A model generated the notes under the pieces. The model saw only the letters and a list, made by a program, of their open reading frames with translations, was not told where the DNA came from and did no database searches. Made by a program: the position numbers and the translations under genes. Source: Streptomyces umbrinus (GTDB lineage: Bacteria; Actinomycetota; Actinomycetes; Streptomycetales; Streptomycetaceae). Taken from it: DNA of 64,000 nucleotides. Positions 57,721-64,000 of this stretch are shown here, one piece after another (within the stretch, counting starts at the first letter, position 1; every line of letters begins with the position of its first letter). The DNA lies in assembly GCF_030817415.1 (NCBI RefSeq), contig NZ_JAUSZI010000002.1, positions 3,162,001 through 3,226,000 on the forward strand, written 5' to 3'.

Positions 57721-58180
57721 GCCCTAAAGGTATCCGCCGTGCGAGGTTGCACTCATCCCGCGGTACCACGACCGGGTCCGAGGTGCTCGGCGGCGCGCTT
57801 CCGCCCCTCCCGGTTCCGTCATACGAAAGAAAAGCGGCAGCAACCCGACAGAAATCGTAAAGGAAAATCGAACCGGCTTTCTGTCATGACCGCGTTGGCC
57901 GAATTACTCACCCTCCAGAAGCGGAACGCGCGACAGCACATACGCCATCCATGAAGTGAGTTCCCCGGTCGCACGTACGGAGGGGACGATTCAGGGGTGA
58001 AATCGATGAAGGTTCGAACGGCGAGAAAGCGCCATAGGACGAAACGCCCTTGACCCGTTCATGAGCACACAGAAACAATTCGGATTGCATTCCGCTGGGC
58101 ACGTGGGGACGGCTCAGTGCACCACGACACGGGGGACTCAGAAAGGCCTGGACCAGGGCCCGACACAGCCGCGTTACCCG

Positions 58181-58207
58181 TGATCCGCGTGGGAACCACG
58201 CGGATCA
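58181..58207. promoter_or_regulatory. Perfect 12-3-12 palindrome upstream of the Pls-like operon
   Basis: TGATCCGCGTGG (58181-58192) and CCACGCGGATCA (58196-58207) are perfectly complementary around GAA. It lies 315 bp before the synthetase start and could be a strong operator, or a hairpin in the 5' leader RNA. Confidence 0.65.
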
Positions 58208-58522: not shown

Positions 58523-61018
58523 GTGGTGGTAAATCCAGGTGAGGTCACGACCGCCGTTCCGGCCGGCTCCCTGACCACCCACGCCCCGGCGAACGGCACC
58601 GAACACGTCCTCGCGGAGGTGCTCGCCGGTGTCGTACGCGTCGAGCGGGTCCCCGTCGACAGCCACTTCTTCGACGACCTCGGTGCCAACTCCCTGGTGA
58701 TGGCCCACTTCTGCGCCCGGGTCAGGAAGCACCCCGACCTGCCGGCCGTGTCGATGCGGGACGTATACGGCCACCCGACGATCCGGGGGCTCGCGGCGGC
58801 GCTCGCCGAGGTCCCGGACGAGCCGCCGGCGCCCGCACCCGAACCGGCCGAGCCTCCCCCACCGGGCAGCACCGCACGGTACGTCCTGTGCGGAGCACTC
58901 CAGTTCCTGGTCTTCGCGGCGTACTGCCTGCTCTCCGGGCTCGTCACCGCTCAGGGGTACGACTGGGTCTCGGCCGGCGAGGGCGTGGTGGACGTCTATC
59001 TGCGGTCGGCCCTCTTCGGCGGTGCCGTCTTCGTCGGGGTGTGCGCGCTGCCGGTGGTGGCCAAGTGGGTGCTGGTCGGCCGCTGGAAGGAGACCGAGTT
59101 CCCCGTCTGGAGCCTGGCCTATCTGCGCTTCTGGACCGTCAAGGCACTGCTGCACGCCAACCCGATGGTCCTGTTCGCCGGCAACCCGCTCTTCGTGCTC
59201 TATCTGCGGGCGCTCGGGGCGAAGATCGGCAAGGGCGTCACGATCCTCTCCCACTCGGTCCCGGTCTGCACCGACCTGTTCACCGTCGGCGCGGGCACCG
59301 TGATCCGCAAGGACTCCTACTTCCTCTGCTACCAGGCTCACGCCGGACGGATACGCACCGGCCCGGTCACCCTGGGCCGGGACGTCTTCGTCGGTGAGAA
59401 GACGGTCCTCGACATCGGCACCTCCATGGGTGACGGCTCCCAGCTGGGCCACTCGTCCGCGCTCTACGGCGGCGCGTCGGTGCCGGACGGGCAGCACTGG
59501 CACGGCTCCCCCGCCCAGCGCACGGACGTCGACTACGTACGGGTCGCGCCCGCGGACTGCGGCACCGCGCGGCGGGTGGGCTACGGCCTGGCCACCGTGC
59601 TGCAGACGCTGTTCCTCTATGTGCCGTTCCTCGTCGGGGGCACGTACATGCTGCTCACGGTGGCGCCCTCGCTGGAGGTGCTGCTCGACCGGGAGACGCA
59701 GCACATCACGTCGGGGCGGTTCTACGCCGAGGCTCTCGGTCTGTCGCTCGCGCTCTTCGTGGTCTTCATCCTGATCGGCTTCGCCACCGTGTCCGTACTG
59801 CCGCGGCTGCTGAACCAGATCCTCGAACCCGACCGGGTCTATCCGCTCTACGGCTTCCACTACTCGGTGCAGCGTGCCGTCGCTCGCCTGACCAACGTCA
59901 AGTTCTTCAAGTGGCTGTGCGGGGACAGCTCGTACATCGTCCACTACCTGCGGGCCCTCGGCTACGACCTCTCGCACGTCGAGCAGACCGGCTCCAACTT
60001 CGGTACGGAGGTGGGGCACGAGACGCCGTATCTGGCCACCGTCGGCAGCGGCACGATGGTCGCCGACGGACTGTCGATCATGAACGCCGAGTTCTCCGGC
60101 ACGTCGTTCCGCGTCACGCGGACGTCGATCGGGGCGCACAACTTCCTCGGCAACCACATCGCCTACCCCGCCGGGGGCCGCACGGGCGAGAACTGCCTGC
60201 TCGCGACGAAGGTGATGGTCCCGCTCGACGGCGAGATCCGTGAGGGGGTCGGCCTGCTGGGCTCGCCGCCCTTCGAGATCCCGCGGACCGTGGAGCGCGA
60301 CACCCGCTTCGACCACCTCCGTGAGGGCGACGAGCTGCACCGCCGCCTGGCCGCGAAGAACCGGCACAACCTGCGCACCATGGGCCTGTTCCTGTTCATC
60401 CGGTGGTTCGACTGGTTCGCGCTCACGGTCCTCGGCTTCGCCGCCTTCGACCTGTACGGGGAGCTCGGCGCCGCGGGCGGTCTGCTGATCGGCGCGTCCC
60501 TGATCGTCGGCCTCGCGTTCACCACCGGCTACTACGTGCTGGTGGAGCGGCTGATCTGCCGGTTCCGTCCGCTGGAGCCCCGGCTGCACTCCATCTACGA
60601 CCCGCTCTTCTGGCGCCACGAGCGGCTGTGGAAGATCCCCGACAGGCACATCAGCGTCTACAACGGCACCCCGTTCAAGAACCTGGTCTGGCGGCTGCTC
60701 GGGGTCCGTGTCGGCCGCAGGGTCTTCGACGACGGGGCCTACATCACCGAGCGGACGCTCACCGCCATCGGGAGCGACAGCACGCTCGGCGCGCACAGCA
60801 AGGTGCAGTCGCACTCGCAGGAGGACGGCACCTTCAAGTCCGACCACATCGAGATCGGCGACGGCGTGACGCTCGGCGTCGGCGCGCTCGTCCACTACGG
60901 GGCGTCGATGGGCGACGGCGCCGTACTCGCCGCCGACTCCTTCCTGATGAAGGGCGAGGAAGTACCGGCGGGGGCCCACTGGGGCGGGAACCCGGCGGTC
61001 GCCCAGCGGCGCTCCTGA
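58523..61018 (+). CDS. Carrier domain fused to a Pls/PosA-type membrane synthetase domain, lacking adenylation domain
   Basis: An 831-residue membrane protein from GTG 58523, behind AAGGAG. Residues about 28-100 are a peptidyl carrier domain (FFDDLGANSLVMAHF, phosphopantetheine Ser57). After a Pro/Glu linker comes the C-terminal domain of poly-amino-acid synthetases (TIGR02353, Pls/PosA): about six membrane spans (YVLCGALQFLVFAAYCLLSG and others) alternating with three hexapeptide/acyltransferase-like domains (LGAKIGKGVTILSH; TRTSIGAHNFLGNH; SHIEIGDGVTLGV-like near 770). In epsilon-polylysine synthetase this region links monomers iteratively. Normally an adenylation domain precedes the carrier in the same chain; here it is absent and presumably supplied by the next gene. 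Confidence 0.85.
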   Translation: MVVNPGEVTTAVPAGSLTTHAPANGTEHVLAEVLAGVVRVERVPVDSHFFDDLGANSLVMAHFCARVRKHPDLPAVSMRDVYGHPTIRGLAAALAEVPDEPPAPAPEPAEPPPPGSTARYVLCGALQFLVFAAYCLLSGLVTAQGYDWVSAGEGVVDVYLRSALFGGAVFVGVCALPVVAKWVLVGRWKETEFPVWSLAYLRFWTVKALLHANPMVLFAGNPLFVLYLRALGAKIGKGVTILSHSVPVCTDLFTVGAGTVIRKDSYFLCYQAHAGRIRTGPVTLGRDVFVGEKTVLDIGTSMGDGSQLGHSSALYGGASVPDGQHWHGSPAQRTDVDYVRVAPADCGTARRVGYGLATVLQTLFLYVPFLVGGTYMLLTVAPSLEVLLDRETQHITSGRFYAEALGLSLALFVVFILIGFATVSVLPRLLNQILEPDRVYPLYGFHYSVQRAVARLTNVKFFKWLCGDSSYIVHYLRALGYDLSHVEQTGSNFGTEVGHETPYLATVGSGTMVADGLSIMNAEFSGTSFRVTRTSIGAHNFLGNHIAYPAGGRTGENCLLATKVMVPLDGEIREGVGLLGSPPFEIPRTVERDTRFDHLREGDELHRRLAAKNRHNLRTMGLFLFIRWFDWFALTVLGFAAFDLYGELGAAGGLLIGASLIVGLAFTTGYYVLVERLICRFRPLEPRLHSIYDPLFWRHERLWKIPDRHISVYNGTPFKNLVWRLLGVRVGRRVFDDGAYITERTLTAIGSDSTLGAHSKVQSHSQEDGTFKSDHIEIGDGVTLGVGALVHYGASMGDGAVLAADSFLMKGEEVPAGAHWGGNPAVAQRRS

Positions 61019-61083
61019 CGGCTCCGCGGCACGGACAGGCTCCGCGGCACGGACAAGAAAGACAAACAGGGGGAAGCAAGACC

Positions 61084-63414
61084 ATGGAAACTATCCCGAA
61101 GTGGACGCTCGACCCGGTGCCCGGCACCGCGGAGTACGAAGTCCCGCTGCCCGACGGGCTGTCGCGGGAACCCCGCGCCCTCCTGGCCGCACACGCACGG
61201 GTCCTCGCCGCACTGTCCGGCGAGCGCGAGGTGACGGTCGGATACGTGGCGGCGAAGGGCGAGCGGCCGAGGCCGTGCCCGCTGACCGTCGGCACCGGCT
61301 CCTGGCACGACCTGCTGGACCACATACACGAGGCCGAGGCGGACCTGGCCGCGCAGAGGGCGGGAGACGAACCGGCGGCCTTCGAGACCGTGCTCGATCC
61401 GCACGGCGGCCGGGGCCCCGAGGACACCGTGCTGCACGTGGCGTTCGAGGACCACACCCTGCGCCTGCGCTACCGCACCGACGTCCTCGACGCGGACGCA
61501 GCCGCCCGGATCGCCGGCTACCACCTCACCGCGCTCAGCCTGCTCGCCGCCGACCCGGACGCCGAGCCCGGCCGGCAGAGTCTGCTGTCCGACGGCGAAC
61601 TCCGGCTGCAGCTCCATGGGTTGGCGGGGCCGCACCGCGAGCTGCCGGACCGCCGGGTCCACGAGCTGTTCGAGGAAAGGGTGTTGGCCCACCCCGAAGC
61701 CGTCGCGGCCGTGCAGGGCGACCAGGAGTGGACGTACCAGGAGCTCAACTCCCGGGCGAACCAGCTCGGTCGGGCCCTGCTGACCCGCGGGCTGCGCCGC
61801 GAGGACGTCGTCGCCGTGGTCATGGAGCGCGACCTGGACTGGATGGCCGCCGTCCTCGCCGTCCTCAAGGCGGGCGGCGTGTATCTGCCCATCGAGCCGC
61901 ACTTCCCCGCCGAACGCATCGCGGCCACCCTGGCGCGCGCCGGCTGCGAACTCGTCCTGACGGAGGACGGCAGCACCACCACCCTGGACGTGGCCGACAC
62001 CGGCGCCCGCATCCTGCACGTCGACACGGCCTACGCGGAGAACCACCCCGACAGCGACCTCGGCATCCCCGTCTCCGCGGACCAACTCGCCTACATCTAC
62101 TTCACCTCCGGCTCCACCGGCGAGCCCAAGGGCGCGATGTGCGAGCACGCCGGCTTCCTCAACCACGTCCACGCCAAGCTCGACGACCTGGGCGTCGGCG
62201 AGGGCCAGGTGGTCGCCCAGACCGCACCCCAGTGCTTCGACATCTCGCTGTGGCAGCTGGTCTCCGCACTCCTGGTCGGCGGCCGGACCCTGCTGGTCGC
62301 GCAGGAGGTGATCCTGGACGTCCCGCGGTTCGTGGACACGATCACCGGAGGCCGGGTCAACGTCCTCCAGGTGGTCCCGTCCTATCTGGAGGCCGTGCTC
62401 GCCGAGTTGGAGCAGCGCCCGCGCGAACTGCCGGACCTGCACTGCGTGTCGGTCACCGGGGAGGCGGTGAAGAAGGAGCTCGTCGAGCGCTGGTTCGCGG
62501 CCGAGCCCGGCATCCGGCTGGCCAACGCGTACGGGCTGACCGAGACCTCGGACGACACCAACCACGAGGTCATGTCCCGGGTGCCTGACCAGGACAGGGT
62601 CCCGCTCGGGCGGCCGGTCGCCAACGTGCGCGTGTACGTAGTCGACGAGGACCTGTCTCCCGTACCTCTCGGCGCACCCGGCGAGATCGTCTTCTCCGGA
62701 GTCTGTGTCGGCCGCGGGTACGTCAACGACCCCGAGCGGACCAGGGCGGCGTTCACCATCGACCCGTACCGCCCGGGTGAGCGGCTCTACCGCAGCGGCG
62801 ACCACGGCCGCTGGCTGCCCGACGGCAAGCTGGAGTTCCTGGGCCGCCGGGACAGCCAGGTGAAGATCCGCGGTTTCCGTATCGAGATCGGCGAGATCGA
62901 GAACGCGCTGCTGCGGGTGCCCGGGGTCCGGGACGGCGCCGTGGTGGTCGTGGGCGGCACGCGGCTTGTGGCTTTCTGCGCCGGGTCCGCCCGGTTCGAC
63001 TCCGGGGCCGTGCGGGAGCGGCTGGCCGTGTCGCTGCCCGCGTACATGGTCCCCTCGGCCGTCCACTGGCGGGAGAGCCTGCCGCTGACCGCCAACGGCA
63101 AGACCGACCGGAAGACGCTGACCGGACTCGCCGGTGAGCTCGACTCCGCCGGGAACGGCTCGCCCGCGGGGGAGGGCACGCACGCGCCCGGCACCGCGAG
63201 CGAGCGCCGGGTGGCGGCGGCCTGGGCCCAGGTGCTCGGCATCCCCGGCGACCGGATCGGCCGCCGGGACCACTTCTTCGACCGCGGCGGCACCTCGCTC
63301 GCGGCGGTGAAGCTCGCGATCGCCCTGGACCGGGCGATCACCCTCAAGGACGTCACACGTCATCCGGTCCTCGCGGACCTGGCGGGGCTCCTGGACACCC
63401 CCACTGCCTCCTGA
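61084..63414 (+). CDS. NRPS adenylation-carrier protein with a reduced N-terminal condensation-like remnant
   Basis: A 776-residue cytoplasmic enzyme. ATG 61084 begins a roughly 180-residue segment resembling the end of a condensation domain (LHVAFEDHTLRLRYRTDVLD), without an HHxxxDG motif. The adenylation domain follows, with A3 YFTSGSTGEPKGA, A5 NAYGLTETS, A7 YRSGDHGRW, A8 GRRDSQVKIRGFRIEIGEIE and A10 LPLTANGKTD. By hand alignment to GrsA the specificity code is DIWQSTADDK, close to the DIWELTADDK code of diaminobutyrate domains. A carrier domain ends the chain (FFDRGGTSL, Ser738). It likely activates a basic or diamino acid and loads its own or the neighbouring carrier. Confidence 0.88.
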   Translation: METIPKWTLDPVPGTAEYEVPLPDGLSREPRALLAAHARVLAALSGEREVTVGYVAAKGERPRPCPLTVGTGSWHDLLDHIHEAEADLAAQRAGDEPAAFETVLDPHGGRGPEDTVLHVAFEDHTLRLRYRTDVLDADAAARIAGYHLTALSLLAADPDAEPGRQSLLSDGELRLQLHGLAGPHRELPDRRVHELFEERVLAHPEAVAAVQGDQEWTYQELNSRANQLGRALLTRGLRREDVVAVVMERDLDWMAAVLAVLKAGGVYLPIEPHFPAERIAATLARAGCELVLTEDGSTTTLDVADTGARILHVDTAYAENHPDSDLGIPVSADQLAYIYFTSGSTGEPKGAMCEHAGFLNHVHAKLDDLGVGEGQVVAQTAPQCFDISLWQLVSALLVGGRTLLVAQEVILDVPRFVDTITGGRVNVLQVVPSYLEAVLAELEQRPRELPDLHCVSVTGEAVKKELVERWFAAEPGIRLANAYGLTETSDDTNHEVMSRVPDQDRVPLGRPVANVRVYVVDEDLSPVPLGAPGEIVFSGVCVGRGYVNDPERTRAAFTIDPYRPGERLYRSGDHGRWLPDGKLEFLGRRDSQVKIRGFRIEIGEIENALLRVPGVRDGAVVVVGGTRLVAFCAGSARFDSGAVRERLAVSLPAYMVPSAVHWRESLPLTANGKTDRKTLTGLAGELDSAGNGSPAGEGTHAPGTASERRVAAAWAQVLGIPGDRIGRRDHFFDRGGTSLAAVKLAIALDRAITLKDVTRHPVLADLAGLLDTPTAS

Positions 63415-63533
63415 CCACGGCCGACCACGCCGACGACACGAAAGAGACGGAACCGAAGGCACCGACGACACCCATGACCGGAACACCGCACACCCGCACG
63501 ACCGAACACCGCAAGGCCGAAAGGAAGCACCTG

Positions 63534-64000
63534 ATGTCGTCTTCATCTCCGACGTTGCTACCGGACGTCGACCTGCGCCCCGGCAGCCCTCCGATCCTGC
63601 GCGCCGACGCCGCGGGCGACACGGCGGGCTGGGCGGCCGAACACCGCGACGCGCTGCGGGCCTTCGTCGCCGAGCACGGCAGCCTGCTGGTCCGCGGCCT
63701 GGGGCTGCGCGACCCGGACACGACCGCGGCCGTCTTCCGCCGGCTGGCCACGACCCTGATGCCCGACCGGGAGTCCTTCGCGCCCCGGCGGACCTACGAG
63801 GACGGTGTGTACTCCTCGTCCAAGTGGCCGCCGAACCAGCAGATGTGCATGCACCACGAGCTGAGCTACGCGCTGGAGTTCCCCGGCCTGATGCTGTACG
63901 CCTGCCTCGACGCACCCGACCAGGGCGGGGCCACCGCGGTCGCCGACGCGCCTGCCGTGCTCGACGCGCTGCCCGCCTCCCTCACCGCACGGTTCGAGCG
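63534..64000 (+). CDS. SyrP/TauD-like non-heme iron oxygenase (3' truncated by window)
   Basis: At least 155 residues from ATG 63534 (AAAGGAAG before it); the end lies beyond the window. It belongs to the Fe(II)/2-oxoglutarate-dependent TauD superfamily. FVAEHGSLLVRGLGL and MHHELSYALEFPGLMLYACL are close to the SyrP branch, whose members hydroxylate amino acids bound to NRPS carrier domains. His107 and Glu109 form the H-x-E/D metal pair; the second His and the Arg for 2-oxoglutarate should follow later. It is 119 bp behind the adenylation gene and likely beta-hydroxylates the activated residue. Confidence 0.82.
   Translation, partial: MSSSSPTLLPDVDLRPGSPPILRADAAGDTAGWAAEHRDALRAFVAEHGSLLVRGLGLRDPDTTAAVFRRLATTLMPDRESFAPRRTYEDGVYSSSKWPPNQQMCMHHELSYALEFPGLMLYACLDAPDQGGATAVADAPAVLDALPASLTARFE

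What the first reader, a model, noticed from the sequence alone, without database searches (positions are those of the whole stretch)
58523..64000. Split Pls/PosA-type synthetase with a separate adenylation-carrier protein and a carrier-directed hydroxylase
Seen: the membrane C-terminal domain of poly-amino-acid synthetases is fused to a carrier domain only, and an adenylation-carrier protein and a SyrP-like oxygenase follow in one operon. Known: epsilon-polylysine, gamma-poly-diaminobutyrate and poly-diaminopropionate synthetases are single A-carrier-membrane chains. Inference: this is a two-protein version with two carriers, which would allow modification (hydroxylation) of the tethered monomer before polymerisation or chain transfer. 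That could yield a hydroxylated or alternating homopolymer not made by the single-chain enzymes.
Basis: partly seen in the sequence, partly recalled or inferred. Interest (0 to 1): 0.88.

Follow-up and report, generated by a model that had tools for sequence, protein, structure and literature searches.

The report
Split two-carrier diaminopropionate-polymer-type synthetase
A five-gene operon, found in many soil actinobacteria, makes the small diamino acid diaminopropionate, tethers it to a protein, probably oxidises it there, and passes it to a membrane enzyme like the ones that build natural cationic polymers; no product is known.

Summary
58523-61018 is a carrier (PCP) plus the Pls/PosA membrane domain (TIGR02353, 797 bits, no adenylation domain); 61084-63414 is adenylation-PCP; 63474-64538 is a TauD-type oxygenase. 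Right of the window follow SbnB and SbnA, both above curated cut-offs, so the monomer is very probably L-2,3-diaminopropionate (Dap). No hidden A domain and no siderophore NRPS was found. In 62 named loci with enough flank, PlsT, A-PCP and TauD occur together in 62 and all five genes in 56. At least 38 of 121 sampled Streptomyces genomes carry PlsT and this TauD. Two genomes fuse PCP-PlsT, A-PCP and TauD into one chain. The A-PCP/TauD unit also occurs in seven stretches without PlsT, two of them with a different diamino-acid pathway. None of 90 A-PCP proteins shows the HHxxxD motif of a condensation domain, so PlsT is the likely condensing enzyme. Unproven: the oxidation product (simple hydroxylation of free Dap would be unstable), and whether a polymer or a short peptide results. 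A new variant of the Pls/PosA kind; ten searches of an open-access library found no description.

The parts
58050..58079 (+). promoter-like TTGACC-18-AACAAT, in a block conserved upstream of the operon in relatives
   Evidence: 1 found, 0.4 (sd 0.7) in shuffles; the block CGAAACGCCCTTGACCCGTTCATGAGC is seen in 6 of the 7 aligned upstream regions, one of them (L062) with one change; L077 did not align. Consensus match only.
58181..58207 (.). perfect 12-bp inverted repeat with 3-nt spacer in the presumed leader (attenuator or operator, untested)
   Evidence: present in relatives, with pairs changed on both arms in L062 by eye; no Rfam match
58523..61018 (+). PlsT: PCP-TIGR02353 membrane condensing protein (831 aa) without adenylation domain
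58610..58804 (+). carrier domain 1 (PCP1; Ser57 invariant)
   Evidence: PF00550; S57 among invariant columns of 24 PlsT
58886..60997 (+). TIGR02353 domain; hexapeptide-repeat matches, soluble segments between three pairs of hydrophobic segments
61084..63414 (+). A-PCP protein (776 aa): remnant of a C domain, A domain, PCP2; no thioesterase, unlike its longer relatives
61084..61638 (+). probable remnant of the C-terminal half of a condensation domain (no HHxxxD)
   Evidence: alignment with TE-type relatives; relative L043 matches PF00668 only at profile 186-279, 23.6 bits, below its cut-off of 30.6; HHxxxD in 0 of 90
61669..62721 (+). adenylation domain, pocket residues D I W Q S T A D D K
   Evidence: PF00501; pocket positions by hand with GrsA numbering recalled; same ten residues in 83 of 92 aligned A-PCP rows
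63208..63393 (+). carrier domain 2 (PCP2), Ser in 92 of 92 rows
63474..64000 (+). TauD/SyrP-like Fe(II)/2-oxoglutarate oxygenase, runs to 64538 beyond the window (start perhaps near 63534). Two more genes of the operon lie wholly right of the window and cannot be entered as parts: SbnB at 64535-65605 (L001:8536-9606) and SbnA at 65668-66657 (L001:9669-10658), both +.
   Evidence: PF02668; H127 in 102, E129 in 101, H321 in 101 of 102 aligned rows; SbnB TIGR03944 413.7 bits (cut-off 326.9), SbnA TIGR03945 378.1 bits (cut-off 349.95)

Best explanation
The operon makes an oxidised, Dap-based cationic oligomer or polymer with a split Pls/PosA-type synthetase. SbnA and SbnB make L-Dap. The A domain of the second protein activates Dap and loads it on its own carrier (PCP2) and, since the operon has no other A domain, probably also in trans on the carrier of PlsT (PCP1). 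TauD oxidises the Dap held on PCP2. The membrane domain of PlsT then joins the units, doing the work of the condensation domain that the A-PCP protein has lost. Shown: the genes, their domains, the intact carrier serines and iron ligands, conservation of the set, fusions, purifying selection. Inferred with good support: Dap as monomer, TauD acting at the A-PCP stage. Inferred with weak support: nature of the oxidation, polymer rather than short peptide, route from PCP2 to PCP1.
For: SbnB and SbnA above cut-off. Of 62 (of 80) named loci with enough flank, 62 hold PlsT+A-PCP+TauD and 56 all five. In 33 varied loci the only families found in more than 14 loci are these genes and opposite-strand frames over them, judged by coordinates. 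Of 40 Streptomyces genomes with TauD at 62% identity or more, 38 hold the split PlsT; of 20 (of 56) genomes without a TauD match, 0 do; 37 of 42 TauD copies have it within 9 kb. Single-chain fusions PCP-PlsT-A-PCP-TE-TauD (L128, 2356 aa) and PCP-PlsT-A-PCP-TauD (L149, 2323 aa; by BLAST only). A-PCP on one frame with TauD in L136, L139 and L140, where no PlsT lies in the stretch; SbnB/SbnA replaced by an SbnA-like enzyme, an ArgH-like lyase and a kinase in L134, L140 and L141 while A-PCP and TauD stay. The six of 33 loci with an extra threonine-synthase-like gene (two of the six checked by profile) are the same six that show the pocket variant DIWQSTTDDK. 73 positions are fixed (95% or more) for the same residue in split and single-chain membrane domains, 21 of them polar.
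Against: No product, transcript or assay. The pocket code was not found in the papers searched and differs from the Pls-type codes quoted in PMC10522769. A second cluster in the same genome with SbnA and SbnB shows no A domain with this code. Six of the 62 loci lack one or both Dap genes in the stretch: L089, L101 and L128 both, L118 and L125 SbnA, L131 SbnB. One of 20 sampled short PlsT genes (L047) stands without the other four; TauD of 62-63% occurs in two genomes without PlsT (G107, G080). Hydroxylated free Dap would be unstable (chemistry recalled). 18 of 62 loci carry a thioesterase on A-PCP, which fits release of a short product as well. At 55 positions with a polar residue on at least one side, split and single-chain membrane domains are fixed for different residues.
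Confidence: 0.55

Rival explanations
1. PlsT is not a polymerase here but a membrane-bound replacement for a condensation domain between two carriers: it joins Dap on PCP1 to oxidised Dap on PCP2 once or a few times, and a short peptide is released (by the thioesterase where there is one).
For: Order PCP1-PlsT-(C remnant)-A-PCP2-(TE) in both fusions; no HHxxxD before the A domain in 90 of 90, five of which start at a stretch end; TE in 18 of 62 loci; the same A-PCP/TauD cassette stands beside ordinary NRPS genes (L138, L139).
Against: 44 of 62 loci, the window type among them, have no TE on A-PCP; the membrane domain keeps 73 residues fixed as in single-chain Pls, whose characterised members polymerise.
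Confidence: 0.3
2. It makes the known comb-like polymer multi-L-Dap-poly-L-Dap, with TauD serving another role.
For: The polymer exists in a Streptomyces and consists of Dap (cited in PMC10522769 and PMC9606270); two carriers and one Dap-type A domain could give Dap-Dap units.
Against: No gene assignment for that polymer seen (the paper itself was not available); TauD is conserved with intact ligands and no oxidation is mentioned in the passages seen.
Confidence: 0.07
3. A siderophore or other metallophore operon in which these genes are minor parts.
For: Dap and carrier-bound hydroxylation occur in metallophores; SbnA/SbnB were first described there (recalled).
Against: Beyond the five genes no gene family was found in more than 14 of 33 loci except opposite-strand frames (smaller families were not all annotated); to the right of SbnA come an AidB-like gene, a GAF regulator and unrelated genes.
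Confidence: 0.05
4. A decaying operon: the A-PCP has lost its thioesterase and part of a C domain and makes nothing.
For: No TE and small deletions in the C remnant against relatives.
Against: dN/dS 0.245-0.400 for all five genes; TE-less form in 44 of 62 loci; active residues kept.
Confidence: 0.03

Closest known systems
Epsilon-poly-L-lysine synthetase Pls and PosA (delta-poly-L-ornithine synthetase)
   Same: TIGR02353 membrane domain with three pairs of membrane segments, PCP just before it; 21 polar positions shared as fixed with 26 single-chain Pls-type proteins of Streptomyces.
   Different: No A domain in the chain; a second carrier on a separate A-PCP; an oxygenase; the membrane domain falls apart from the single-chain ones in the tree, 95 against 26.
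Poly-L-Dap synthetase of S. albulus PD-1 (PMC4668381)
   Same: Dap monomer made by an SbnA/SbnB-like pair, assembled by an A, PCP and membrane-domain enzyme.
   Different: That enzyme is one 4,338-bp reading frame; its Dap genes are not located close to it, and the words oxygenase and hydroxylase do not occur in the main text.
SyrP/AmbC-type NRPS oxygenases
   Same: TauD family, HxE...H ligands, gene next to an A-PCP protein; one homologue is named Protein AmbC by a source.
   Different: Partner A domain is of a Dap-associated type; I found no description of Dap oxidation by such an enzyme (searches listed in the report).
Staphyloferrin B SbnA/SbnB
   Same: Both genes score above the curated cut-offs.
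   Different: No siderophore synthetase gene was found in the operon.

Membership tests
Pls/PosA (CHPA) synthetases | TIGR02353 C-terminal domain | tested here: met
   796.8 bits, cut-off 423.1
Pls/PosA (CHPA) synthetases | A, PCP and membrane domain in one chain | tested here: not met
   A domain on a separate protein; the A-PCP gene is separate and adjacent in 19 of 20 Streptomyces loci chosen for a short PlsT frame, the twentieth having PlsT alone
Pls/PosA (CHPA) synthetases | Three pairs of membrane segments | tested here: met
   hydropathy scan only; no topology predictor run, no finished structure model
Pls/PosA (CHPA) synthetases | A-domain code with acidic third residue, as in the codes quoted in PMC10522769 | tested here: not met
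   DIWQSTADDK against DGESISVVNK, DLEDIGTVTK, DSECYGGVTK, DIESIGTVTK
Pls/PosA (CHPA) synthetases | Product is an isopeptide homopolymer | not testable with these tools
   needs chemistry
Dap biosynthesis SbnA/SbnB | Curated equivalog scores | tested here: met
SyrP-type carrier-directed oxygenase | TauD domain with HxE...H ligands | tested here: met
SyrP-type carrier-directed oxygenase | Acts on aminoacyl-S-PCP | not testable with these tools
   only supported by fusion and gene order
Siderophore NRPS | Further NRPS and siderophore genes in the operon | tested here: not met
   nine genes right of A-PCP scanned; shared neighbours in 33 loci

The most novel reading that the evidence does not exclude
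The Pls-type membrane domain has replaced the condensation domain of an NRPS module and works between two carriers, joining Dap on PCP1 with oxidised Dap on PCP2 to give an alternating, oxidised poly-Dap (or oligo-Dap): a heteropolymer that single-carrier Pls enzymes, which use a free acceptor, could not make.
Probability: 0.3. Interest if true: 0.82.

Novelty: new variant of a known kind. Interest (0 to 1): 0.62.

Why it matters
Cationic isopeptide polymers are few and useful (food preservatives, cell-penetrating carriers). An operon in about a third of the sampled Streptomyces genomes with a split, tailoring version of the synthetase points to a common but, as far as searched, undescribed product. 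A split system also lets each carrier, the oxygenase and the membrane domain be tested apart, which bears on how Pls enzymes condense and release their chains.

Tried and rejected
Sequencing error or hidden upstream A domain: rejected, since the genome-wide AMP-binding search finds no other match in the window and the same split recurs in many genomes. Siderophore NRPS: disfavoured. AidB-like gene after SbnA (66703-68376) as sixth member: not adopted; in the 62 loci it occurs in 32, none with a TE; in the seven such loci of the 33-locus sample other neighbours are conserved too; the genome has a second AidB; its dN/dS is lower, 0.14-0.16 in three comparisons and 0.26 in the fourth. Literature search for the pocket code gave nothing. 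A second cluster with SbnA and SbnB in the same genome was read for a matching code: no match, a result against easy assignment. Structure prediction of TauD was accepted but not finished at the last try; that of PlsT was never accepted, so no fold search was run.

Counts and limits: the tree is FastTree, midpoint rooted; support 1.0 for the single-chain clade, 0.665 for the other. The named scan favours close relatives of TauD and kept 80 of 87. Of the 121 genomes, 68 were given; 53 were not. The list typed into holds the 54 TauD rows of 55% identity or more except one partial row (G119, 57%); of the 42 rows at 62% or more, two are partial matches (G054, G034). The Fisher value treats related genomes as independent and is not used. 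Of the 90 A-PCP frames, five start at a stretch end. Several named loci are metagenome bins whose organism labels may be wrong.
Full report
What is there. The window is G000:C2:3162001-3226000 of a 12.4-Mb genome; the nearest named relative by the oxygenase is Streptomyces phaeochromogenes, 98%. On the + strand lie PlsT (58523-61018: PCP and TIGR02353 membrane domain), A-PCP (61084-63414), TauD (63474-64538), SbnB (64535-65605) and SbnA (65668-66657), the last two and the end of TauD right of the window. No A domain is in PlsT. The two carriers have their serines. The TauD iron ligands H127, E129 and H321 are kept in 102, 101 and 101 of 102 aligned rows. All five genes show dN/dS of 0.245-0.400 against four relatives. 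The genome also has a single-chain Pls-type frame of 1390 aa at C2:9223759.

How general it is. TIGR02353 is over its cut-off in 228 of 392 Streptomyces genomes. In the rows listed (a capped list) the open frames fall into two sizes, 854-1106 and 1172-1715 aa. I took 20 of the shorter ones: 18 have all five genes, one has four with the stretch cut, one has PlsT only. A named-genome scan with TauD gave 80 loci (87 relatives; the best 80 kept) in Streptomyces, Actinacidiphila, Kutzneria, Kibdelosporangium, Lentzea, Actinomadura, Pseudonocardia, Geodermatophilus and some metagenome bins. 62 of the 80 have enough flank; 62 of 62 hold PlsT, A-PCP and TauD, 56 of 62 all five; the six others lack one or both Dap genes in the stretch. 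The scan favours close relatives, so this measures linkage, not prevalence. For prevalence: TauD at 62% identity or more in 40 of 121 Streptomyces genomes. Of these 40, 38 have the split PlsT; of 20 (of the 56) genomes without a TauD match at E 1e-60, none; of 8 others with more distant or partial TauD, 2; the remaining 53 genomes were not tested for PlsT. 37 of 42 TauD copies have PlsT within 9 kb; the five exceptions are G102 and G034 (PlsT on another contig), G012 (PlsT far off), G107 and G080 (no PlsT).

Two forms. In 18 of the 62 loci A-PCP carries a C-terminal thioesterase (about 1085 aa in the sampled Streptomyces); in 44 none was found, as in the window. Neither form shows an active condensation domain: 0 of 90 A-PCP proteins have HHxxxD before the A domain, five of them starting at a stretch end, and what precedes the A domain in L043 matches only profile 186-279 of 456 of the Condensation family, below its cut-off. 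In the plasmid of an ant-associated Pseudonocardia, and in L114, L120, L122, L126 and L127, an extra A-like region precedes the Pls domain; where I read it, the pocket is not a normal amino-acid pocket by my alignment at about 30% identity, which may be off.

Who works with whom. Two genomes carry single chains: PCP-PlsT-A-PCP-TE-TauD (L128, 2356 aa) and PCP-PlsT-A-PCP-TauD (L149, 2323 aa; BLAST only). Fourteen further loci, most with more distant TauD genes, were fetched. Eight hold the same type of A-PCP with TauD (DIWQ-type pocket): six with SbnB and SbnA (L136-L139, L148, L149), two with an SbnA-like enzyme, an ArgH-like lyase and a kinase instead (L140, L141); seven of the eight have no PlsT in the stretch. 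A Kitasatospora plasmid (L134) is like L140. From recall, that second gene set is the friulimicin route to 2,3-diaminobutyrate. The other six (TauD 43-48%) are NRPS clusters in which TauD lies beside an A domain of another code. So A-PCP and TauD form a unit that goes with vicinal diamino acids made in two ways and is handed to different assembly enzymes, PlsT being one. In six of 33 loci (Kutzneria, Kibdelosporangium, Lentzea) an extra threonine-synthase-like gene (two of the six checked by profile) goes together with a changed pocket, DIWQSTTDDK, seen in those same six loci, again linking pocket and precursor genes.

The membrane domain. Split PlsT domains (95) and single-chain Pls-type domains (26) fall into two groups, with only 118-133 bits between the window's domain and the single-chain ones by phmmer. 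They share 73 positions fixed for the same residue, among them H764, D768, E700, Q762 and D774, and differ at 55 fixed positions with a polar residue on at least one side. PMC10522769 (section 13 read) models this domain as three left-handed beta-helices over six membrane helices, like sugar-nucleotide acyltransferases; hexapeptide matches here agree. My own models did not finish.

Mechanism. Best reading: Dap is made by SbnA/SbnB, activated by the A domain, held on PCP2, oxidised there by TauD, and joined by PlsT with PCP1. The A domain must also load PCP1, or the unit must move from PCP2 to PCP1; neither is shown. A hydroxyl on either carbon of free Dap is an unstable carbinolamine (chemistry recalled), so I expect either a desaturated or otherwise oxidised Dap, or hydroxylation of an N-acylated residue. 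The place of PlsT before an A-PCP whose own condensation domain is reduced to a remnant suggests that PlsT replaced it. That would make it a condensation catalyst between two carriers, which single-carrier Pls is not. Whether a polymer or a short peptide results cannot be told from sequence.

Literature. Ten searches of the open PMC library listed no paper that by title or abstract describes this operon or a split Pls. PMC4668381: parts 1 and 2 of 5 and passages. PMC10522769: sections 10 and 13 and passages; the word 'split' and the phrase 'in trans' do not occur in it. PMC9606270, PMC11298585, PMC9248904: passages only. Subscription papers, among them the comb-like polymer paper (Takehara 2021), were seen only as citations.

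Noticed in passing
58181-58207: Perfect 12-bp inverted repeat (3-nt spacer) between the promoter-like site and PlsT, conserved in related Streptomyces, with pairs changed on both arms in L062 by eye; attenuator or operator, no Rfam match.
   Followed up: partly
66703-68376 (right of the window, L001:10704-12377): AidB-like acyl-CoA dehydrogenase 45 bases after SbnA; present in 32 of 62 loci, none of which has a TE on A-PCP; the genome has a second AidB.
   Followed up: partly
L136, L137: The A-PCP/TauD/SbnB/SbnA cassette beside phosphoglycerate dehydrogenase-like, SDR and DSBA-like genes (and a ketosynthase-like gene in L137), without PlsT: perhaps a polyketide-type cluster using the modified Dap unit.
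   Followed up: partly
G000:C2:5138000-5185000 (L150-L152): A second region of the same genome with SbnA, SbnB, two TauD genes and at least seven A domains, four with Asn/Asp-like codes by recall.
   Followed up: partly
L133 (Pseudonocardia plasmid pBCI1-2): Operon variant on an ant-symbiont plasmid: broken A-like region, tandem PCPs, Pls domain, TauD and a cysteine synthase homologue.
   Followed up: partly
L142-L147: NRPS clusters with a TauD relative (43-48%) next to a module of code DAQDLGLVDK or similar (Gln/Glu-like by recall); several have repeated modules of code DALQYGGGTK or similar.
   Followed up: no
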